From: a virus
Strand: one strand, 5' to 3'
DNA length: 21,241 nucleotides
Virus record (IMG/VR): IMGVR_UViG_3300048839_001866
Coordinates: 1-21,241 of that record
Shown here: one piece after another, positions 1,707 through 18,894 of the stretch
Numbering within the stretch: position 1 is the stretch's first letter
Layout of the letters: each line of letters opens with the position of its first letter
The notes under the pieces: model-generated
Told to the model about the DNA's origin: nothing
What the model saw: the letters and a program-made list of their open reading frames with translations, nothing else
Database searches by the model: none
Position numbers and translations under genes: made by a program

Positions 1707-3425
1707 ATGCATCCTCGGACGAAAGGGCCGGTGCGGGCGGTTATCTACGCCCGGTATAGTTCCGACCTACAAAGATCAGCTTCGATCGACGACCAGACGC
1801 GTCTTTGTCGCCAGTACATCGAGAGGCAGGGCTGGCAACTGACCCAGGTCTATGCCGACCCGGAGATGACCGGGCGGACCGCGCATCGGCCGGAATATCA
1901 GAGGCTTTTGCGGGATGGGGAAGAGAGGCGCTTCGACATCGTCGTCACCGAGGCCGTTGACCGCCTGAGCCGGCGCTTGGCGGATCTGGCCGACATGTAC
2001 GACAACCTGCGCATCTCCGGGATCAAGATGGTCACGCCGGAGTTGGGCGAGTTGTCGGAGGTTCATATCGCGATCCTGGGCCTCGTCGCCCAGCTTTATT
2101 CCAGCCAGCTGGCCGAGAAGACCAGACGGGGCCAGGTCGGCCGGGCCGAAAAGGGCTTTATCCCCGGTGGTCTTGCGTATGGATACCGGGCCCTGCCGCC
2201 CAAAAAGGAGGGCAAGAAGATGGTGGCCGGGGAACGCGAGATTATCCCCGAGCAGGCGGAAATCGTGGCCCGGATTTTCCGGGAATACGCCGACGGCAAG
2301 AGCCCGGAAGCGATTGCGCGGGACCTCAATCGTGAGGGCATCCCGGGTCCCAGGGGCGGATCCTGGTACAACACGACCCTCCGCGGCCAGGGCCGGCGAA
2401 CCGCCGGGATGCTGCGCAATCCGATCTACGTCGGGCGAGCGGAGTACGGGCGCGCCAGCTATGTAACGCACCCCAAGTCTGGCAAGCGGAAGGCCAGGCT
2501 GAATGACGGAGATGACGTCGTCGCCATTGACGCGCCGCACCTTCGGATCGTCGATGAAATTCTGTGGGCCCGGGTGCAGCGGCGGCTCCAGGAGGTCAAT
2601 GCCAAGGCGACTGACACGCGAAGGGCCGTGGCCTCGGATCGCCCCGGAACCGACATCGATTTGAACGCCACGCACCGGCCGCAATATCTTCTGTCTGGGC
2701 TGATGCGGTGTTCCGTCTGTGGCGCGAAATACACGATGATCGGCAAGGACCGGTACGGCTGCGCAAACCGGGGGCGGGGGACCGGCATGTGCACCAACAG
2801 CAAGACCATCATCCGCCAGACGGTCGAGGATCGGGTGCTGGCGGCCTTGCAAAGCCGCCTCCTGACGCCGGAGAACGTCGACCACTTCGTCAAGACGGTG
2901 ACCAAGGAGACCGAGAAGCGTCGGGACGCGGCGGCGAAGGACGAAAGGAGCCTCCGGAAGGCGCTTGCGGCCGCCAAGCAGGCGATCGACCATATCATGG
3001 TGGAAATCGAGCAGGGACGCTCCTCTCTGGCGCTGTACGAAAGGCTGGCCTCGCGGGAAGCGGAGAAGGCCGGGATCGAAGGGCAGCTGGCCGACCTGGA
3101 GGCCAGGCCGCTGGAGATCGCCCTGCCGGAGAACCTGCCCGAGATTTTCGCCGGCAAGGTTGGCAACCTGGCCGAGGCCCTGAACGATCCCCAGGAGAAG
3201 GATGCGGCGATGACGATCCTGCGGGAATTGATCGACAAGGTGGTGATGATCCCGGACCCGGAAGCGCCGAACGGCATGGCGCTGGAGGTGCATGGGGCCC
3301 TGGCGGAGATGCTGGCGCTGGGCGAAGAAATGGGCCGAAAAGGCCGACGGCCCGCTGGTTTGGCGGGCCGTCAAGCTTCGGTGGTTGCGGGGGCAGGATT
3401 TGAACCTGCGGCCTTCAGGTTATGA
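1707..3425 (+). CDS. Large serine recombinase (site-specific integrase), 572 aa
   Basis: This enzyme would integrate and excise the left element by the serine-recombinase mechanism. The resolvase domain opens with AVIYARYSSDLQ, with S18 the likely nucleophile, followed by SIDDQ, a DRLSRR segment (about 87-92) and the helix-rich region typical of the family. The recombinase domain follows (about 150-290). A zinc-ribbon-like segment with CSVC and GCANRGRGTGMC lies at about 335-362. A charged coiled-coil-like stretch follows (about 390-470). The start at ATG 1707 has a strong GGAGGAAAG site. The length is typical of large serine integrases. Its last residues, GAGFEPAAFRL, are encoded by the antisense of the tRNA 3' fragment at 3382-3425, and the TGA stop lies opposite the anticodon loop. 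Confidence 0.93.
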   Translation: MHPRTKGPVRAVIYARYSSDLQRSASIDDQTRLCRQYIERQGWQLTQVYADPEMTGRTAHRPEYQRLLRDGEERRFDIVVTEAVDRLSRRLADLADMYDNLRISGIKMVTPELGELSEVHIAILGLVAQLYSSQLAEKTRRGQVGRAEKGFIPGGLAYGYRALPPKKEGKKMVAGEREIIPEQAEIVARIFREYADGKSPEAIARDLNREGIPGPRGGSWYNTTLRGQGRRTAGMLRNPIYVGRAEYGRASYVTHPKSGKRKARLNDGDDVVAIDAPHLRIVDEILWARVQRRLQEVNAKATDTRRAVASDRPGTDIDLNATHRPQYLLSGLMRCSVCGAKYTMIGKDRYGCANRGRGTGMCTNSKTIIRQTVEDRVLAALQSRLLTPENVDHFVKTVTKETEKRRDAAAKDERSLRKALAAAKQAIDHIMVEIEQGRSSLALYERLASREAEKAGIEGQLADLEARPLEIALPENLPEIFAGKVGNLAEALNDPQEKDAAMTILRELIDKVVMIPDPEAPNGMALEVHGALAEMLALGEEMGRKGRRPAGLAGRQASVVAGAGFEPAAFRL

Positions 3426-3596: not shown

Positions 3597-4754
3597 ATGT
3601 CGGAACGCATCACCGATGCCCTCGCCAAGCGGGCCAGTGCGGGCGACCGCCCCCAGGTCTTCTTCTGGGACGCCGACGTCAAGGGATTCGGCCTGCGCGT
3701 CACCAATCGCGGCGCCAAGTCCTTCATCCTGGATTACCGCGTCGGCGGCCGCCAGCGGCGCATCACCATCGGCAGCTATCCCGACTGGTCGGTGGCTGCC
3801 GCCCGCACCGAGGCCGGCAATCTGAAGCGGGACGTGGACCTCGGCAATGACCCCATGGGCGAGCGCCATGCCGAGCGGTCGGCCCCCACCATGCGCGACC
3901 TGTGGGACCGCTACAAGCGCGACCACCTGCCACGCAAGGCGGCCCGCTCCCAGGCCGACGAGACCATGATGTGGGAAAAGCTGGTGCTGCCCACCCTGGG
4001 CAAGCACAAGGTGGCCGACGTCACCCACACCGACATCGAGTCCCTGCACCGCGACATCACGGTGAGCCGCGGCACGCCGGTGCGGGCCAACCGGGTGATC
4101 GAGGTGGTGCGCCGCGCCTTCAATCTGGCGATGCGCTGGGAATGGGTGGAGAAGAATCCAGCCTCGGGCCAGCAGCGCAACCCGGAGGAGAAGCGGCAGC
4201 GGTATCTGTCGCCCGAGGAACTCTCCCGCCTGTCTGCGGCGCTGGCCGCCCACCACGAGCCGGTTTCGGCCGATGCCATCCGCATGCTGATGCTGACCGG
4301 CGCCCGCAAGAGCGAGGTGCTGGGGGCCACCTGGGAGATGTTCGACCTGAACGCGGGGGTGTGGACCAAGCCCAGCGCCCACACCAAGCAGCGGAAGGAA
4401 CACCGGGTGCCGGTCTCGGCCAACACCCTGACTCTGCTGAAACGAATCAGGGAAGCCGCCACGGGACCATACGTCTTCCCCGGCAAGGGTGGCGACCAGC
4501 CGCTCACCGACGTCAAACGCTCCTGGGCGGCGGTGTGCAAGGCGGCGGACATTACCGGCGCCCGCATCCACGACCTGCGGCATTCCTTCGCCTCGCTCCT
4601 GGTCAGCGGCGGCGCGTCGCTGCCGATCATCGGCGCCATGCTGGGCCACACCCAGGTGCAGACCACCCAGCGTTACGCCCATCTCTACGACGAGCCGCTC
4701 CGCGCCGCCGCCGACCATGTGGGCAAGGCCATCGACATGGCGGGGAAGAAATAG
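3597..4754 (+). CDS. int: Tyrosine recombinase/phage integrase (P4-type), 385 aa
   Basis: This would catalyse integration and, with an excisionase, excision of the prophage at the tRNA site. The N-terminal part (about 1-85, VFFWDADVKGFGLRVTNRGAKSFILDYRVGGRQRRITIG) is the arm-binding domain of P4-type integrases. A core-binding helical domain follows (about 95-195). All catalytic residues are visible: R237 in LTGARKSEV, K264 in HTKQRKEHR, H325 and R328 in HDLRHSF, H351 in LGHTQ and the nucleophile Y360 in QRYAHLY. The ATG start is preceded by AGGAAA (3585-3590). The length is normal. It reads away from the att fragment, as expected for the integrase-proximal end of a prophage. Confidence 0.95.
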   Translation: MSERITDALAKRASAGDRPQVFFWDADVKGFGLRVTNRGAKSFILDYRVGGRQRRITIGSYPDWSVAAARTEAGNLKRDVDLGNDPMGERHAERSAPTMRDLWDRYKRDHLPRKAARSQADETMMWEKLVLPTLGKHKVADVTHTDIESLHRDITVSRGTPVRANRVIEVVRRAFNLAMRWEWVEKNPASGQQRNPEEKRQRYLSPEELSRLSAALAAHHEPVSADAIRMLMLTGARKSEVLGATWEMFDLNAGVWTKPSAHTKQRKEHRVPVSANTLTLLKRIREAATGPYVFPGKGGDQPLTDVKRSWAAVCKAADITGARIHDLRHSFASLLVSGGASLPIIGAMLGHTQVQTTQRYAHLYDEPLRAAADHVGKAIDMAGKK

Positions 4755-9449: not shown

Positions 9450-9956
9450 ATGACTAAACTCAACGAGAGCAAGACCGAGTTCGCCGCCCGCGTCGGCCTG
9501 ACCAAGGGCCGCATCTCGCAATTGGTCGGCCAGGGACTGCCGGTCGAACCCGACGGCACCATCGCGGTGGCGGAGGGGCTGGCCTGGATGGAAAGCAACC
9601 TTGATCCCGCCCGGCGCAACAAGGGCGGCACCCCGGCAACCGCCGCCAGCGGCACCCTGTCGCTGGCCGAGGCCCGGCGGATGTACATGGTGGTGCAGGT
9701 GCAACGCGCCCGCCTCGCCTACGACAAGGAACGCGGCCAGGTGATCGACGCCAAGGAAGCGGCGGCGGCGGTGTTCTCCCGCGCCAAGGCGGAACGCGAT
9801 TCCCACATGGCCTGGGTCAGCCGCACCGCGCCGCTGCTGGCCGCTGAAACCGGCGCAGATCCGCAGGCCACCTTCGCGGCGCTCGACCGCTTCATGCGCG
9901 AGCATCTGGAGCACCTGTCCGACACCCCGGTGTGGAGCCTGCGCGATGCAGGGTGA
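9450..9956 (+). CDS. Terminase small subunit-like protein (Nu1-type), 168 aa
   Basis: The N-terminus (about 1-45, SKTEFAARVGLTKGRISQLVGQGLPVEPDGTIAVAEGLAWM) is a winged helix-turn-helix of the kind used by small terminases to bind cos. A central helical segment rich in Arg/Glu follows (SLAEARRMYMVVQVQRARLAYDKERGQVIDAKEAAAAVFSRAKAERD), typical of the oligomerisation region of Nu1-like proteins. The gene overlaps the large terminase gene by 11 bp, supporting a partner relationship. I chose ATG 9450; an in-frame TTG at 9429 has no advantage. There is no strong Shine-Dalgarno upstream. Confidence 0.75.
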   Translation: MTKLNESKTEFAARVGLTKGRISQLVGQGLPVEPDGTIAVAEGLAWMESNLDPARRNKGGTPATAASGTLSLAEARRMYMVVQVQRARLAYDKERGQVIDAKEAAAAVFSRAKAERDSHMAWVSRTAPLLAAETGADPQATFAALDRFMREHLEHLSDTPVWSLRDAG

Positions 9957-11799
9957 CAGCGCCCAGGTGGTGGTGGATCGGGCGTGGCGTCGAGGCATCC
10001 GGCCCGAGCCGCCGATCCCGGTGTCCGAATGGGCCGACCGCCACCGGGTGCTGCCGCCGACCTCGGCCGAGCCGGGCCGTTGGCGCACCAGCCGCACGCC
10101 CTATCTCAAGGACGTGATGGATGCGCTCTCCACCGCCAGCCCCTTCGAGCGGGTGGTGCTGATGAAGGGTGCCCAGACCGGCGGCACCGAGGCCGGCCTC
10201 AACTGGCTGGGCTACATCATCCACAACGCCCCCGGCATCACCATGCTGGTGCAGCCGTCCCTCGACATGGTCCGCCGCAACACCACCGTGCGCATCGATC
10301 CGCTGATCGAGACCACCCCGACCCTGCGCGAGCTGGTGTCGCCCGCCCGCTCGCGCGACGCCGGCAACAGCCTGTTCCGCAAGTCCTTCCCCGGCGGCCA
10401 ACTGGTAATGACCGGGGCCAATTCCGCCGCCGGCCTGCGCTCCACCCCGGTGCGCTATCTGTTCCTCGACGAGGTGGACGGCTATCCCGGCGATGCCGAT
10501 GGCGAGGGCGATCCGGTCGATCTCGCCATCCAGCGCACCGCCACCTTCCGGGGCCGGCGCCGAATCTATATGGTGTCGACGCCGACGCTGAAGGGCCATT
10601 CCCGCATCGAGGCCGCGTTCCTCGATTCGGACCAACGGTATTTCCATGTCCCCTGCCTGCATTGCGGCGAGATGGCCGCGATCACCTGGGCGCGCATCCG
10701 CTGGCCCGAAGGGCGCCGCGATCAGGCGTTCCTTGTCTGCGAATCATGCGGCGGCATCCACCACGAGCACGACAAGCCCGCCTTGCTGGCGGCGGGAGAA
10801 TGGCGGCCCACGGCCACCGGCGATGGGCGCACCGCCGGCTTCCACCTGTCGGCTCTCTATTCCCCCTGGGAAACCTGGGCCGAGATCGCCCAGGAACATG
10901 GCCGCGTCAAATCCGACCCGCCCCGATTGCAGGTGTGGGTCAACACCAAGCTGGGCGAGTCCTGGGAGGACCAGGCCGGCGACACAGTGCCCGCCGATCC
11001 GCTGATGGCCCGGCGCGAGGATTGGGGCGACCGCCTGCCCGAGGCTGCTGCCATGCTGACGGCGGGCGTCGATGTCCAGGGCGACCGGCTGGAGGTGCAG
11101 GTGATCGGCTGGGGCGCCGACGAGGAAGCCTGGGTGGTCGATTATCGCGTGCTGTGGGGCGATCCGTCCGGCCCGCGCGTCTGGGCCGATCTCGATTCTT
11201 ACCTCGCCACCACCTTCGCCCACCCCAAATCCGTCGCCGACATGCCCATCCGCGCCGCCTGCATCGACACCGGCGGCCACCACACCAAGGCGGCCTACGA
11301 ATTCTGCCGCACCCGGCTGGCGCGGCGCATCTGGGCGATCAAGGGCCGTGGCGGCGCCGCCATCCCGGTGTGGCCCCGCCGCCCCACCCGCGTGCGCGGC
11401 AAGGTGCCGCTGTTCATCGTCGGCGTCGATGCGGTCAAGGACGCCCTCTACGCCCGGCTGCGCCTGACCGAGCCCGGCCCCGGCGCCGTCCATTTCCCGC
11501 GCCGGATGGACGCCGACTATTTCCGCCAGCTCACCGCCGAGCGGGTGGTCACCCGGTTCGACCGGGGCCGCCCGATCCGCTCGTGGCAGCCGAAGCGGGA
11601 CGGCGAGCGCAACGAGGCGCTGGACACCTTCGTCTACGCCACCGCCGCACTGCATGGTCTGGTCGCCATGGGGCTGCGGCTGAACGACGAGGCGGTGGCG
11701 ATAGCGGTGCTGCCAACGCGGGGAGCGCCGGTCACGGCGAACTCGGCTTCCACCGCCCGCCCGGCACTGGCGCCAATCCGCTCGCGGTGGATGGGGTAA
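9946..11799 (+). CDS. Phage terminase large subunit, GpA family, 617 aa
   Basis: This is the DNA-packaging motor: an ATPase that pumps phage DNA into proheads and a nuclease that cuts it. The N-terminal region WADRHRVLPPTSAEPGRWRTSRTPYLKDVMDAL (about 25-60) is characteristic of GpA terminases. The ATPase shows a Walker-A-like segment VLMKGAQTGGTEAG (about 70-83) and Walker B YLFLDEVDG (about 170-178). A CxxC pair (CLHCG, CESCGG) lies at about 235-270. The nuclease domain opens with LTAGVDVQGDRLEVQVIGWG (about 370-390). The length suits the family. The C-terminus ends in the usual basic IRSRWMG tail, so the protein appears complete. In related phages the portal usually follows closely, but here a 5.7-kb insert intervenes. 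Confidence 0.93.
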   Translation: MQGDSAQVVVDRAWRRGIRPEPPIPVSEWADRHRVLPPTSAEPGRWRTSRTPYLKDVMDALSTASPFERVVLMKGAQTGGTEAGLNWLGYIIHNAPGITMLVQPSLDMVRRNTTVRIDPLIETTPTLRELVSPARSRDAGNSLFRKSFPGGQLVMTGANSAAGLRSTPVRYLFLDEVDGYPGDADGEGDPVDLAIQRTATFRGRRRIYMVSTPTLKGHSRIEAAFLDSDQRYFHVPCLHCGEMAAITWARIRWPEGRRDQAFLVCESCGGIHHEHDKPALLAAGEWRPTATGDGRTAGFHLSALYSPWETWAEIAQEHGRVKSDPPRLQVWVNTKLGESWEDQAGDTVPADPLMARREDWGDRLPEAAAMLTAGVDVQGDRLEVQVIGWGADEEAWVVDYRVLWGDPSGPRVWADLDSYLATTFAHPKSVADMPIRAACIDTGGHHTKAAYEFCRTRLARRIWAIKGRGGAAIPVWPRRPTRVRGKVPLFIVGVDAVKDALYARLRLTEPGPGAVHFPRRMDADYFRQLTAERVVTRFDRGRPIRSWQPKRDGERNEALDTFVYATAALHGLVAMGLRLNDEAVAIAVLPTRGAPVTANSASTARPALAPIRSRWMG

Positions 11800-11814
11800 T
11801 AGACTGGATCGTCA

Positions 11815-11843
11815 TTGGCAATCCTTGCCAACCGCGTTATGCT
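11815..11843 (+). promoter_or_regulatory. Promoter and overlapping operator of the toxin-antitoxin operon
   Basis: A -35 element TTGGCA (11815-11820) and a -10 element TATGCT (11838-11843) are separated by exactly 17 bp, matching consensus at 5/6 and 4/6 positions. TTGGCAA (11815-11821) and TTGCCAA (11825-11831) form a perfect 7-bp inverted repeat around TCC, covering the -35 and half the spacer. This fits autorepression by the ribbon-helix-helix antitoxin. The antitoxin ATG is 24 bp downstream of the -10, with GGGAG before it. Confidence 0.72.
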
Positions 11844-11867
11844 TCCGGGATCGAAGGGAGATTCACC

Positions 11868-12131
11868 ATGCCCACGCGAAACGTCAATCTGACCGACGAC
11901 CAGGACGCCTTCGTCGAAAGAATGGTCAAGGCCGGCAAATACCAGAATGCCAGCGAGGCCATGCGCGACGCCGTGCGCGGATTGCAGCAGCGCTGGAAAG
12001 AGGATGAACTGAAGCTCACGGTGCTACGGGAACAGATCAAGGCAGGTGCTGAGGCCCTGGATCGCGGCGACTTCACCGAGGTGGATGACGCCGACCTCGA
12101 CGCGACTCTCGACAAGCTGGCATCCAATTAG
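11868..12131 (+). CDS. parD: ParD-family antitoxin (ribbon-helix-helix), 87 aa
   Basis: The antitoxin of a type II toxin-antitoxin pair. The N-terminal RNVNLTDDQDAFVERMVKAGKYQNASEAMRDAVRGLQQR (about 4-42) is the ribbon-helix-helix DNA-binding fold, with the typical GxYxNASExxRDAxR signature of ParD proteins. The C-terminal part (LTVLREQIKAGAEALDRGDFTEVDDADLDATLDKL) is the acidic, flexible toxin-binding tail. It is expected to neutralise the downstream toxin and repress its own promoter through the palindrome at 11815-11831. The start is fixed by GAAGGGAG shortly upstream. The toxin gene begins 12 bp after its stop. Confidence 0.9.
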   Translation: MPTRNVNLTDDQDAFVERMVKAGKYQNASEAMRDAVRGLQQRWKEDELKLTVLREQIKAGAEALDRGDFTEVDDADLDATLDKLASN

Positions 12132-12143
12132 GCGCGGCCCTTG

Positions 12144-12509
12144 ATGGCACGTTATCGTCTTTCCGGCCCCGCGAAGGCGGATATCTCCTCCATCCTGCGC
12201 ACGAGCGAGACGCAACATGGCACGGAAGCGCGCATCCGCTATCGCGGACTGCTGACGGCGGCGATGCGCCGCATCGCAGCGGCCCCACAAGGGCGATTGA
12301 CCTTGGAGCGGGGCGACCTTCTCGCCGGATTGCGCAGCCTGCATATCCGCCACAGCCGCAACGAGAGCCGCGAGGCACCGGTCGGCGACCCCGTGCATGT
12401 CATCTTCTACCGCGTCGTCGAGCCCGAACTCGTCGAGATCGTGCGCGTGCTGCATGACCGGATGGAACCAAGTCGGCATATGTCGAAAGAAGCGGAAGAC
12501 GACGCATGA
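12144..12509 (+). CDS. parE: ParE/RelE-superfamily toxin, 121 aa
   Basis: The toxin of the pair. It opens MARYRLSGPAKADISSILRTSETQHG, as in ParE toxins, and continues with a helical region containing RYRGLLTAAMRRIAAAPQ. It ends with GLRSLHIRHSR, then VHVIFYRVVEPELVEIVRVLHDRMEPSRHM, the beta-strand core and C-terminal RVLHxRM signature of the ParE subgroup. ParE toxins generally act on DNA gyrase, but the target of this one is not shown by sequence. It is of normal length or slightly long, with about ten extra residues after the usual end. Its stop overlaps the next start (ATGA), coupling it to the methyltransferase-like genes. Confidence 0.88.
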   Translation: MARYRLSGPAKADISSILRTSETQHGTEARIRYRGLLTAAMRRIAAAPQGRLTLERGDLLAGLRSLHIRHSRNESREAPVGDPVHVIFYRVVEPELVEIVRVLHDRMEPSRHMSKEAEDDA

Positions 12510-13207
12510 AAAAACCATCCCCCACGAACTCGCGGGCTGAACAGCCATCCGCCGATGAACTGATCAAGTCGAAGAAGCGCGTCGCCGACCACGGCGAGGT
12601 GTTCACGCCCGCCTGGCTGGTGGACGCCATGCTAACCCTCGTCAAGGACGAGGCCGACAGGATCGACTCGCGCTTTCTGGAGCCCGCCTGTGGCAGCGGA
12701 AATTTCCTGATCCGGGTTCTTCAACGGAAGCTGGCCGCCGTCGAAGTGAAGTTCGGCAAGTCCGAGTTCGAAAGGCGCCACTACGCCCTTCTCGCGTTGA
12801 TGTGCGCCTACGGAATCGAGTTGCTGGCCGACAACATCGCCGAGTGCAGGGCGAACATGCTCGAGGTTCTGGCCGAGTACCTCGACATCGGCGAGGCCGA
12901 CGAATTTTACCACGCAGCCTCGTTCGTCCTTTCGCGGAACCTCGTCCATGGTGACGCCCTGACGATGCGAACGCAGGACGGGGCGCCGATCACGTTTGCC
13001 GAATGGGCCTATATCGGGAAGGGCAAGTTCCAGCGCCGCGATTTCCGCCTGGACGTTCTCACAGGGTCCTCGGCCTTTAGCGCGGAGGGTTCGCTGTTCG
13101 CGCATCTGGGCAAGCACGAGATCTTCACTCCTACCAAGACCTACCCGCCGATGACGGTGCGTGACCTCGCGTCTGCCGATGGCGGGACACCGAAGGAGGC
13201 CGCATGA
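12506..13207 (+). CDS. N6-adenine methyltransferase-like SAM-binding subunit without NPPY, 233 aa
   Basis: This looks like the front half of a gamma-type adenine methyltransferase. Visible in order are a motif-X-like GEVFTPAWLV (30-39), motif I FLEPACGSGNFL (57-68), motif II YGIELLADNIAECRANML (102-119) and motif III LVHGDAL (146-152). The catalytic (D/N)PP(Y/F) that should follow is absent. In its place are APITFAEWAYIGKGKFQRRDFRLDVL (160-185) and a C-terminus ending in TKTYPPMTVRDLA. The protein is not obviously frameshifted: it ends in a clean ATGA overlap with the next gene, which carries NPPY. It may bind SAM as one subunit of a split enzyme, or be a degenerate regulatory subunit. The overlap with the toxin stop points to one transcript. 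Confidence 0.75.
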   Translation: MKKPSPTNSRAEQPSADELIKSKKRVADHGEVFTPAWLVDAMLTLVKDEADRIDSRFLEPACGSGNFLIRVLQRKLAAVEVKFGKSEFERRHYALLALMCAYGIELLADNIAECRANMLEVLAEYLDIGEADEFYHAASFVLSRNLVHGDALTMRTQDGAPITFAEWAYIGKGKFQRRDFRLDVLTGSSAFSAEGSLFAHLGKHEIFTPTKTYPPMTVRDLASADGGTPKEAA

Positions 13208-14866
13208 GCATAGAGACTGGCTTCACCCAGGCTAGCTTTGCCTTGCGCAGCCGCAATCCGGACGTGTTGACCTGCATCGCGAACCTGTCGAACGACGAGG
13301 TCTTCACGCCACCCGAATTCGCCAACCGCATGCTCGACACGCTGGCCGAGGCGTGGGCGACCGGCCATGACGGCGCGAATATCTGGACCGACAAGACGGT
13401 GACGTTCCTCGATCCCTTCACCAAATCGGGCGTGTTCCTGCGGGAGATCACCAGCCGCCTGACCGCGGGGCTGGCGGCCGAAATTCCCCATCTTCGGGAA
13501 CGCGTTGATCATATCTTGACCAAGCAGGTCTTCGGCATCGGCATCACCCAGTTGACCAGCCTGCTGGCGCGGCGCAGCCTCTATTGCTCAAAACACGCGA
13601 ATGGCGAACATTCGATTGCCATGAGTTTTGAGAGTGACGCCGGCAACATTTGGTTCGAGCGCACCGAACATACGTGGATTGACGGCAAATGCAAGTATTG
13701 CGGCGCCAGCCAAACATCGCTCGACCGCGGCGAGGGGTTCGAAACCCATGCTTACTCATTTATTCATACCGACAACATCAAGACTCGGATCGCCGAGCTA
13801 TTTGGAGGCAACATGCATTTCGACGTGATCATTGGCAACCCGCCATATCAGTTAGAGACTGATGGACACGGCAAGCAAGCGCGCCCCATTTATCACCAGT
13901 TCGTCCAACAGGCTAAAGCTCTCGAACCGCGCTATCTCTCGATGATTATTCCCGCGCGCTGGTTTTCTGGCGGCATGGGATTAGATGAGTTCCGCGAGAG
14001 TATGCTTTCCGACAACCGATTGCGCGAAATCAATGACTATCTTACCGCTTCGGATGTATTCCCTGGTGTTGGACTGAAGGGAGGTGTGTGCTACTTCCTT
14101 TGGGATAGGGACAACCCTGGGGAGTGCCGCGTCACCACGCGGTTCAAGGATTGGCCCGCCTCCACCGCCATACGTCCGTTACTTGAAGAAGGCGCTGATG
14201 TTTTCATCCGCTTCAATGAAGGGCTGTCGATTCTCAAGAAGGTCGTAGCTGTTGAGACTGGGAAATCCCAGTCCCTTTCGCTCCCGGAAAGCAAACGATT
14301 CGACCGACTGGTCAGTTCAATCGGCGCCTTTGGCCTTGAAAGTACATTCAAGGGTAAAGAAAAGAAATCTGCCGATGATGACCTGAAGGTCTATCGAAAT
14401 GGCGGCATTGGATTTATCGCAAGATCAAAGGTGTTGAAAGAACGAAACGTTTTCGATAACTGGAAAATATTCATTGGCCGTGCCGCCCCAGGCACTGGAA
14501 ACAAAGATACATACCCCCACCGCATCATCAGCACCCCCTTCATCGGTGAGCCGGGCAGCATTTCATCGTGGACGTATATGTATATCGGTCCGTTCAATTC
14601 GAAGAACGAAGCCGAAAGTGCTTTGTCGTATCTAACTTGCAGGCTGACGCGTTTTTTGATTCTGCTGCACAAGCCCTCGCAGGACACGACGCGCAAGGTC
14701 TATACATTCGTTCCCAAGCAAGATTGGGAAAATAAATGGACAGATGCGGACCTTTATAAAAAATACGCCCTTACCGCTGAGGAAATAGCGTTCATTGAAA
14801 AAATCGTTCGCCCGATGGATTTGACCAGCGACTTGTTCGGTGACGTCTCCGTGGATGATGGCGACG

Positions 14867-14874
<8 letters not shown>
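13204..14874 (+). CDS. Eco57I-type adenine methyltransferase subunit with NPPY and degenerate motif I, 556 aa
   Basis: Resembles Eco57I-like restriction-modification methylases. A motif-X-like DEVFTPPEFANRML lies at 31-44. Motif I is degenerate: FLDPFTKSGVFL (68-79) replaces the usual DPACGSGxFL. Catalytic motif IV is intact, FDVIIGNPPYQ (206-216). Between them is a probable zinc-binding insert with C128 and CKYC (163-166). Downstream, YLSMIIPARWFSGGMGLDEFRESML and FPGVGLKGGVCYFLWDR are typical of this family. The rest (about 300-530) would hold the target-recognition domain, ending in an acidic tail. It overlaps the upstream gene by 4 bp and the helicase gene by 8 bp. Much of this gene is visibly AT-richer than its neighbours. 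It probably supplies the catalytic motif to a complex with the preceding protein. Confidence 0.82.
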
Positions 14875-17407
<2,533 letters not shown>

Positions 17408-17502
17408 TCTTTTTGGCCTCTGCGAAAAGCCCCAGTTCCTCGCCAATCTTTCCCAAACTCTCCGAATAGCCAGGGAATCCGCCGCCTCCGATAATCGGGG
17501 GC
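17408..17502. other. Right edge of the cargo with a palindrome next to the portal start
   Basis: These 95 bp hold no gene. CCGAT (17488-17492) and ATCGG (17494-17498) are inverted around a single A. With one T-G wobble at 17487/17499 the pairing extends to about 17485-17501, ending one base before the portal ATG. The portal lacks a clear Shine-Dalgarno at normal spacing. The palindrome may be an operator or a scar of the cargo junction. No terminator was found for the cargo operon, so it may read into the head genes. Confidence 0.35.
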
Positions 17503-18894
17503 ATGTGGAAATCCCTTCTCCGCGCCGTTGGCCTCGACCGCCGCCGCTCGTTTGACGCGGCCGGCGGTGGTCGCCGTTGGGACGGCGCCCGCACCGTGGA
17601 CGGCCTCAACTCCTCGATCCAGGCCGGCGCCACCACGGCGGCGCGCCGCGCTGGCTGGTACGCCCGCAACAATCCCTGGGTGTCGGCGGCGGTGCAGTCG
17701 CTGGCCGCCAACGCGGTGGGGGCCGGCATCAAGCCGCGCTCGCGCCATCCCGACGCCAAGATCCGCGACACCCTGCATTCCCTGTGGGACCGCTGGACGG
17801 ATCGGGCCGATGCCGCCGGCCTCACCGATTTCTATGGCCTCCAGGCCCTGGCCTTCCGCGCCATGGTCGAGAGCGGCGAAAGCTTCGCCCGCCTGCGCGT
17901 CGCCGAGGATGTGTCCCCGCTGCCGCTCGCCATCGACCTGCTCGACCGCGAGCAGGTGCCGCTGGACCTGCACCGCGACATCGGCGGCGGCGCCCGCATC
18001 CGGGCCGGCATCGAGTTCGACGCCAATGGCCGCCGCGTCGCCTTTCACTGCTATGCCCATCGCCCCGGCGATGCCCTGGCGCCGCTGTCGCTGGACACCG
18101 TGCGCCTGCCGGCCGGCGACGTGGCCCATCTGTTCCAGCCGCTGGCGCCGGGGCAGGTGCGCGGCATCACCTGGCTGGCCCCGGTGCTGCTGCGCGTCCA
18201 CGAACTCGACCAGTACGAGGACGCGGCGCTGGTCAAGGCCAAGGTCGCCGCCCTGTTCACCGGCTTCATCCGCGATCCCGACGGCACGGTGGCCGGCTTC
18301 AACGACGGCAGCGGCGTCGGCGGTGTCCTCCAGGTGGGCATGGAACCGGGCAGCCTGATTCCGCTGCCGCCCGGCGCCGACATCCAGTTTTCCGACCCGG
18401 CCGATCCCGGCGATTACGGTGCCTATACCAAGACCCACATCCGAGCCATCGCCAGCGGCCTCGGGCTTCCCTACGAACTGGTCTCGGGCGACCTGGAGGG
18501 CGTCACCTATTCCAGCATCCGCGCCGGACTGGTGGAATTCCGCCGCCGCATCGAGCAGGTCCAGCACTCGGTGCTGGTGCATCAGTTCTGCCGCCCGGTG
18601 TGGGAGCGGTTCGTCCGCCTCGCCGTGCTGGCTGGCCATCTGCCCGCCGCCGGATTCGACCGCGATCCGTCCGCCTTCCTCGCCTGCGACTGGCTGCCGC
18701 CGAAATGGGACTGGGTCGATCCGCTGAAGGATGCGCGGGCTGAGATCGAGCAGATCAACGCCGGTCTCAAGAGCCGAGGCATGAGCATCGCCGAACGCGG
18801 CTACGACGCCGAGGACGTGGACGCCGCCATCGCCGCCGACCGCGAGCGGGAGAAGCGCCTCGGCCTGAATATGGAGGCAGCGCCCAATGCCTGA
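17503..18894 (+). CDS. Phage portal protein, lambda gpB family, 463 aa
   Basis: Forms the dodecameric ring at the head vertex through which DNA enters and leaves. The N-terminal WDGARTVDGLNSSIQAGATTAARRAGWYARNNPWVSAAVQSLAANAVGAGIKPR (about 27-80) is the family signature. Central segments include SGESFARLRV and LLDREQVPLDL. The C-terminal part shows FSDPADPGDYGAYTKTHIRAIASGLGLPYELVSGDLEGVTYSSIRAGLVEFRRRIEQ (about 288-350), the most conserved part of lambda-type portals. Length is slightly short but normal for the family. The start ATG 17503 follows a palindrome and lacks a strong ribosome site. The stop overlaps the protease/capsid gene by 8 bp, indicating coupled expression. Confidence 0.93.
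   Translation: MWKSLLRAVGLDRRRSFDAAGGGRRWDGARTVDGLNSSIQAGATTAARRAGWYARNNPWVSAAVQSLAANAVGAGIKPRSRHPDAKIRDTLHSLWDRWTDRADAAGLTDFYGLQALAFRAMVESGESFARLRVAEDVSPLPLAIDLLDREQVPLDLHRDIGGGARIRAGIEFDANGRRVAFHCYAHRPGDALAPLSLDTVRLPAGDVAHLFQPLAPGQVRGITWLAPVLLRVHELDQYEDAALVKAKVAALFTGFIRDPDGTVAGFNDGSGVGGVLQVGMEPGSLIPLPPGADIQFSDPADPGDYGAYTKTHIRAIASGLGLPYELVSGDLEGVTYSSIRAGLVEFRRRIEQVQHSVLVHQFCRPVWERFVRLAVLAGHLPAAGFDRDPSAFLACDWLPPKWDWVDPLKDARAEIEQINAGLKSRGMSIAERGYDAEDVDAAIAADREREKRLGLNMEAAPNA

What the first reader, a model, noticed from the sequence alone, without database searches (positions are those of the whole stretch)
12506..14874. Adenine methyltransferase split across two genes with complementary motifs
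The first protein has a textbook SAM-binding motif (FLEPACGSGNFL) and motifs X, II and III, but no NPPY. The second, overlapping by 4 bp, has a perfect NPPY but a degraded SAM motif (FLDPFTKSGVFL). Both carry the FTP segment. The simplest reading is an obligate heterodimer, one subunit binding SAM and the other providing catalysis and target recognition. Alternatively one subunit is regulatory and the other an active but unusual methylase. I know of split methyltransferases in principle, but not of this arrangement as a described system.
Basis: partly seen in the sequence, partly recalled or inferred. Interest (0 to 1): 0.8.

Follow-up and report, generated by a model that had tools for sequence, protein, structure and literature searches.

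The report
Split DNA methylase with swappable half
A prophage carries a three-gene restriction-modification system, of an already published type called DrdVI, in which one gene makes the cofactor-binding part of a DNA methylase and the next makes the catalytic, sequence-reading part, and comparison with relatives suggests that this second part is traded between systems as a cassette.

Summary
In detail: M1 (12506-13207) has an intact SAM loop but no NPPY; M2 (13204-14874) has NPPY and a lysine in place of the loop's first glycine. The claim that it is undescribed is wrong: with M3 (14867-17407, GIY-YIG-like plus helicase) this is a DrdVI-type 'split methylase' system. M2 is 74% identical to M2.DrdVI, and M1-2.DrdVI cloned in E. 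coli gave m6A at GCAGCC.

In 93 operons M1, M2's N-half and M3 share one history and the NPPY+recognition half another; the change falls at NPPY. So M2's C-half looks like an exchangeable specificity cassette on a constant chassis.

Against strict obligacy: phages carry solo M1 genes, and M2 alone is predicted as a complete fold. Nothing was tested biochemically here.

The parts
12506..13207 (+). M1: SAM-binding part of the methylase (motif X, motif I GSGNFL, motifs II and III), no NPPY
   Evidence: (69% identical to M1 of pDrdVI)
12674..12709 (+). motif I of M1, FLEPACGSGNFL
   Evidence: residues 57-68; GxG in 172 of 174 M1 domains
13204..14874 (+). M2: degraded N-half (M2N) plus catalytic and target-recognition half (M2C)
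   Evidence: (74.2% identical to M2 of pDrdVI over residues 9-543)
13204..13818 (+). M2N: degraded SAM-binding half; Lys at the first Gly of motif I, motif-II acid lost; includes a conserved C128/H156/C163/C166 segment
   Evidence: follows M1 and M3 in history
13405..13440 (+). degraded motif I of M2, FLDPFTKSGVFL
   Evidence: residues 68-79; Lys in 150 of 152 M2N domains
13819..14874 (+). M2C: NPPY half of the fold plus target recognition domain; exchangeable cassette
   Evidence: boundary; correlation drop; AU test
13837..13848 (+). NPPY, motif IV
   Evidence: residues 212-215 of M2; Asn in 163 of 165 M2C domains
14867..17407 (+). M3: restriction subunit, N-terminal GIY-YIG-like nuclease segment plus ResIII helicase; ATG overlaps the end of M2 by 8 bases
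   Evidence: resembles DrdVI, called a fused translocase and REase in PMC4996451

Best explanation
12506-17407 is a DrdVI-type restriction-modification operon, M1 | M2 | M3, carried by a lambda-like prophage between its terminase and portal genes. M1 is the SAM-binding half of an N6-adenine methylase, up to motif III. The second half of M2 (M2C) supplies the rest of the fold: NPPY catalysis and target recognition. I infer that the active methylase is built from M1 and M2C. M2's first half (M2N) is a degraded relative of M1 that has lost SAM-binding residues and follows the helicase-nuclease M3; I infer that it ties methylase and motor together. M2C is exchanged between operons as one cassette on a constant M1 + M2N + M3 chassis, which would change the recognised sequence and keep methylation and restriction matched. 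Shown here: motifs, gene order, fusions, mosaic history, predicted folds of the single chains. Published for relatives: m6A activity of cloned M1+M2 pairs. Inferred: the composite active site, the role of M2N, and that cassette exchange changes specificity.
For: Family: operon neighbours on pDrdVI, M2 74.2% and M1 69% identical; published activity of M1-2.DrdVI and of the MaeIV pair. Motif complementarity in 174 M1, 152 M2N and 165 M2C domains. Natural M1-M2C single chains without M2N: L155 and L156, and L259, where M2N sits instead at the C-terminus of M3. Other orders: M1 | M2C | M3-M2N (L185, L186, L189), M1 | M3-M2N | M2C (L183, L262), M1 | M3-M2N-M2C (L016, L020, L250, L251). L155 fusion predicted as a complete methylase, pLDDT 88.4, pTM 0.86, best match CamA 7lt5 Z 23.9, rmsd 5.4, 419 aligned. 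Mosaic history in 93 of the 103 standard operons (10 incomplete ones dropped): distance correlations M1-M3 0.96, M2N-M3 0.93, M1-M2N 0.92, against 0.33 and 0.40 for the two parts of M2C versus M3; sliding windows fall from 0.73 to 0.46 to 0.28 at NPPY and return to 0.90 at M3. Pairs: L009/L135 M1 0.97, M3 0.99, M2C 0.39; L027/L060 M1 0.48, M3 0.57, M2C 0.84. One chassis clade of 20 rows has 99.7 support in M1 and in M2N and one change in M3, but is rejected by M2C data (p-AU 1.95e-5; 6 changes).
Against: No complex could be modelled, so contact between M1 and M2C in the two-gene form is not shown. M2 alone is predicted as a complete methylase fold with M2N beside M2C (pLDDT 86.5, pTM 0.85; CamA 7lt5 Z 22.2), so M2N would have to give way to M1, or M1 sits elsewhere. 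M.TaqI works with a motif I lacking that glycine (recalled), so the Lys alone does not prove loss of SAM binding. M1 occurs alone in 24 viral loci, 20 of them without any NPPY-type ORF found in the locus. L253 has M3 with no M2N detected. L116 has M2N with no M3 in the 2.1 kb to the contig end. The clade for the AU test was picked by me after seeing pairwise identities (M3 identity to L060), not beforehand.
Confidence: 0.72

Rival explanations
1. METTL3-METTL14-like pair: M2 is the active methylase, binding SAM in its own unusual KSG pocket, and M1 is a non-catalytic partner that stabilises it or helps it hold DNA.
For: M2 is predicted as a complete methylase fold; Ser-Gly of motif I is kept.
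Against: 0 of 152 M2N domains keep a motif-II acid, while 174 of 174 M1 domains do. Single-chain relatives keep M1 and M2C and lack M2N in that chain, the opposite of what this model predicts. M2N's history follows M1 and M3, not M2C.
Confidence: 0.17
2. Decayed copy: M1 is a truncated methylase left from a duplication and M2 a dying one; no functional pair.
For: M1 and M2N are related: the M1 profile hits M2 ORFs weakly, at about 20-41 bits.
Against: Complementary motifs are conserved over many phyla; cloned pairs methylate DNA.
Confidence: 0.04
3. The mosaic signal is not recombination but fast, saturated change of the recognition domain in a fixed lineage.
For: M2C is the most divergent part (mean pairwise identity 0.48 against 0.61-0.68 for the other three).
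Against: Windows just behind NPPY have mean distances of 0.34-0.36, like M2N, and still correlate at only 0.28; some pairs share M2C at 0.84 on chassis of 0.48-0.57; M2C data reject the chassis clade.
Confidence: 0.08

Closest known systems
DrdVI of Deinococcus wulumuqiensis 479, plasmid pDrdVI (m6A, GCAGCC, listed as type IIG)
   Same: Same three-gene order; M2 74.2% and M1 69% identical; M1-2.DrdVI was cloned and expressed in E. coli ER2796 (PMC6430315, whole text).
   Different: Carried here by a prophage between terminase and portal genes; M2C, and so perhaps the recognised sequence, differs.
MaeIV of Methanococcus aeolicus (GCACY)
   Different: Archaeal; its sequence was not compared here.
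Type ISP enzymes LlaGI and LlaBIII
   Same: Helicase-nuclease coupled to an N6-adenine methylase; M2 model matches LlaGI 5ffj Z 19.9, rmsd 5.5, 403 aligned.
   Different: Single polypeptides; here three genes, with a GIY-YIG-like instead of the Mrr-type nuclease (the latter recalled).
Split m5C methylases M.AquI and M.EcoHK31I
   Same: One methylase from two polypeptides (PMC3404938, passages).
   Different: Cytosine-C5 enzymes cut behind motif VIII or with motif IX apart; here an adenine enzyme cut between motifs III and IV, with an extra degraded half.
PacII M1M2S, non-canonical type I
   Same: Two different M subunits (PMC9613975, passages).
   Different: There M1 (NPPF, m6A) and M2 (NPPY, m4C) are two catalytic subunits sharing an S subunit; here only M2 has the catalytic motif.

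Membership tests
DrdVI-type split methylase R-M system | adjacent M1 and M2 genes homologous to M1/M2.DrdVI | tested here: met
   69% and 74.2% identity, same order
DrdVI-type split methylase R-M system | fused translocase-REase gene with GIY-YIG domain behind M2 | tested here: met
   ResIII above cut-off, MUG113 below its cut-off (E 0.0011); GIY-YIG-like residues conserved in 93 operons; phmmer 1508 bits to the pDrdVI gene
DrdVI-type split methylase R-M system | m6A activity needing M1 and M2 together | not testable with these tools
   published for the cloned pairs only; no text seen on single genes
N6-adenine methylase, gamma-type motif order X-I-II-III-IV with TRD behind | SAM motif I and NPPY in one chain | tested here: not met
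   split over M1 and M2; the order holds when M1 and M2C are read together, as in L155, L156 and L259
METTL3-METTL14-like heterodimer | one subunit has both SAM site and catalytic motif | tested here: not met
   by motifs neither M1 nor M2 has both; SAM binding itself was not tested
Type ISP restriction enzyme | nuclease, helicase, methylase and TRD in one polypeptide | tested here: not met
   three separate genes in the window

The most novel reading that the evidence does not exclude
A DNA methylase fold cut between motifs III and IV, with two rival N-halves for one C-half: M1 brings SAM and makes the methylating enzyme, while M2N, a pseudo half with a conserved Lys where SAM would bind, occupies the same place on M2C when M1 is absent and links it to the helicase-nuclease. 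Exchange of M1 for M2N would switch the same recognition cassette between 'methylate' and 'restrict or hold', and whole M2C cassettes plug into the chassis to give new specificities.
Probability: 0.2. Interest if true: 0.85.

Novelty: new member of a known kind. Interest (0 to 1): 0.5.

Why it matters
The family is in print in a few lines, without a mechanism in what I saw. The data here give a testable one: which half binds SAM, what the degraded half does, and that catalysis plus recognition move together as a cassette. TRD exchange is known in type I and other systems; exchange of half of the methylase fold with its catalytic motif would be a different unit of exchange. If right, specificities could be read, and perhaps re-matched, by M2C alone.

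Tried and rejected
PDB by sequence: no chain for M2 at E 0.01, one weak one for M1 (3ufb, E 0.00079). NCBIfam, PHROGs and PADLOC gave partial hits only; PADLOC PDLC03626 matches M3 and M2 as parts of one 1359-aa model. Lower GC of M2C in the window (0.504 against 0.580-0.621 for M1, M2N and M3) was considered as a sign of import and dropped: M2C GC is lower by more than 0.05 in 47 of 93 operons and higher by more than 0.05 in 0, so it reflects the domain. Partial correlations were higher for M1-M3 (0.74) than for M2N-M3 (0.40), so they do not single out M2N as the partner of M3. Invertible or silent M2C cassettes: one spare copy (L283), no general pattern in the 35 loci looked at. Three alignments for the fusion (A4, A6, A8; A5 was set aside for its plasmid rows) put M2C's FDVII out of register or were replaced by A9 before folding.

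Full report
What is there. The window is a virus record with lambda-like genes: gpA terminase at 9946-11799 and portal at 17503-18894. Between them lie a ParE-type toxin gene, M1, M2 and M3 on the same strand. M1 (12506-13207) and M2 (13204-14874) share ATGA; M3 starts at ATG 14867 and overlaps M2 by 8 bases. M1 has the SAM-binding motifs and no NPPY; M2 has NPPY and KSG instead of GxG. Motif names are recalled; their positions come from the alignments.

Known relatives. tblastn of M2 against plasmids found 86 records, 37 covered to 80% or more. One is pDrdVI, with the same three genes. PMC6430315 (whole text) lists M1-2.DrdVI, GCAGCC, m6A, type IIG, cloned and expressed in E. coli. [quoted passage not shown] Searches for DrdVI and for split methylase wording listed no paper on its mechanism; the library lacks most subscription journals.

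Distribution. Genome surveys with the M1 profile: Actinomycetota, 11 of 296 genomes at 130 bits or more (two of them known beforehand), 10 with M2 directly behind and the eleventh with M1 | M3-M2N | M2C; Pseudomonadota, 4 of 349 at E 1e-12, two of them full length, one known beforehand, and two fragments; Bacillota, 5 of 348: three M1 | M2 pairs (one with M2 broken into two ORFs, one with a short M2 ORF), one M1-M2C fusion and one broken fragment. With the M2 profile, Bacteroidota: 25 of 296 at E 1e-30, one known beforehand; in the 12 best loci M1 is present in 12.

Exceptions. M2 without a clear M1: L017 (plasmid pTEF3, insertion sequences nearby) and L136 (6 kb upstream, no M1 hit); in L018 and L252 only a divergent M1-like ORF of 19-24 bits per piece precedes. 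M1 without M2C: 24 viral loci, mostly short proteins; 4 have some NPPY- or DPPY-bearing ORF in the locus and 20 none that my pattern found; five are full length (L159, L177, L182, L187, L188).

Modules. With separate profiles for M1, M2N, M2C and M3, 197 distinct loci (duplicates by identical M1 or M2C removed) gave 103 with M1 | M2N-M2C | M3 and many cut or divergent ones. Informative others: M1-M2C in one chain without M3 or M2N in the locus (L155, L156, and with a divergent M1 part L256); M1-M2C with M3-M2N (L259; L260 similar, with its M2C spread over two ORFs); M1 | M2C | M3-M2N (L185, L186, L189); M1 | M3-M2N | M2C (L183, L262); M1 | M3-M2N-M2C (L016, L020, L250, L251). Where M3 could be read and M2C was present, M2N was found except in L253, whose M2C ORF has 165 unassigned N-terminal residues; in L284-L286 it is weak (24-56 bits). 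M2C without M2N and without M3 in the locus: L155, L156, L195, L209, L255 and L256; L154 ends at the contig end just behind M2C. M2N without M3: several cut loci; L014 is interrupted by a transposon; L116 has 2.1 kb to the contig end without M3.

Folds. The window's M2 is predicted as a complete methylase with TRD, pLDDT 86.5, pTM 0.85, best match CamA (7lt5_A Z 22.2, rmsd 4.5, 404 aligned). The L155 fusion, M1 plus M2C, is predicted equally well, 88.4 and 0.86 (CamA 7lt5_B Z 23.9, rmsd 5.4, 419 aligned). So M1 and M2N are both predicted to fit the same side of M2C; single-chain prediction cannot decide between them in the two-gene enzyme. The loss of the motif-II acid in all 152 M2N domains argues that M2N does not bind SAM in the usual way.

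Mosaic history. In 93 complete standard operons (of 103) distances of M1, M2N and M3 correlate at 0.92-0.96; the catalytic third and the TRD part of M2C correlate with M3 at 0.33 and 0.40 and with each other at 0.72. Windows of 40 residues along M2 give 0.70-0.87 up to NPPY, 0.46 across it and 0.19-0.38 behind it; M3 starts at 0.90. L009/L135: M1 0.97, M2N 0.87, M2C 0.39, M3 0.99; L027/L060: M1 0.48, M2N 0.60, M2C 0.84, M3 0.57. Of 1169 pairs with M3 identity of 0.8 or more, 767 have M2C below 0.5. In profiles of nine pairs the fall is not always abrupt: identity often dips already in the zinc-like segment before NPPY. For 20 operons with a common chassis against 28 others, M1 and M2N trees hold them together (support 99.7) and M3 needs one change, but M2C needs 6 and rejects the clade (p-AU 1.95e-5); the group was chosen after looking at identities. 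The window's own modules have different nearest relatives: M1 L005, M3 L091, L005 and L003, M2C L023.

Conclusion. It is a member of the DrdVI family. The evidence favours one methylase made of M1 and M2C, with M2N as a degraded half that goes with the motor, and M2C as the unit that is exchanged. The composite site and the role of M2N are inferences; the decisive tests are those on single genes and mutants. TRD exchange as such is known (PMC3077401 and PMC3983042, search listing only).

Noticed in passing
L159, L177, L182, L187, L188 and 19 more viral loci: Phage contigs with an M1-like gene alone and no M2C; 20 of 24 show no NPPY-type ORF in the fetched locus. Perhaps partners for a host M2, or counter-defence.
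   Followed up: partly
window 9946-18894; L006: In the window and in L006 the operon sits in the same slot, between gpA terminase and Phage_portal_2 genes; in L005 a portal gene follows, and the solo M1 of L159 lies just before a gpA terminase.
   Followed up: partly
window 12141-12509: ParE-type toxin gene (PF05016, E 3.4e-11) directly upstream of M1, its end overlapping M1 by 4 bases; an ORF end before it (about 11868-12131) looks like its antitoxin (by eye).
   Followed up: no
L283 6339-7876 and 9657-11197: A second copy of M2C plus the start of M3 (72.7% DNA identity over 1554 aligned columns) upstream of an intact M1 | M2 | M3 operon.
   Followed up: partly
window 13585-13701 (M2 residues 128-166): Cys128, His156, Cys163 and Cys166 are invariant in 59 of 59 aligned M2 rows, a possible zinc site between M2N and M2C.
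   Followed up: no
window 1707-3425 and 3597-4754: A serine recombinase and a tyrosine-integrase-like ORF (by eye) lie close together at the left end.
   Followed up: no
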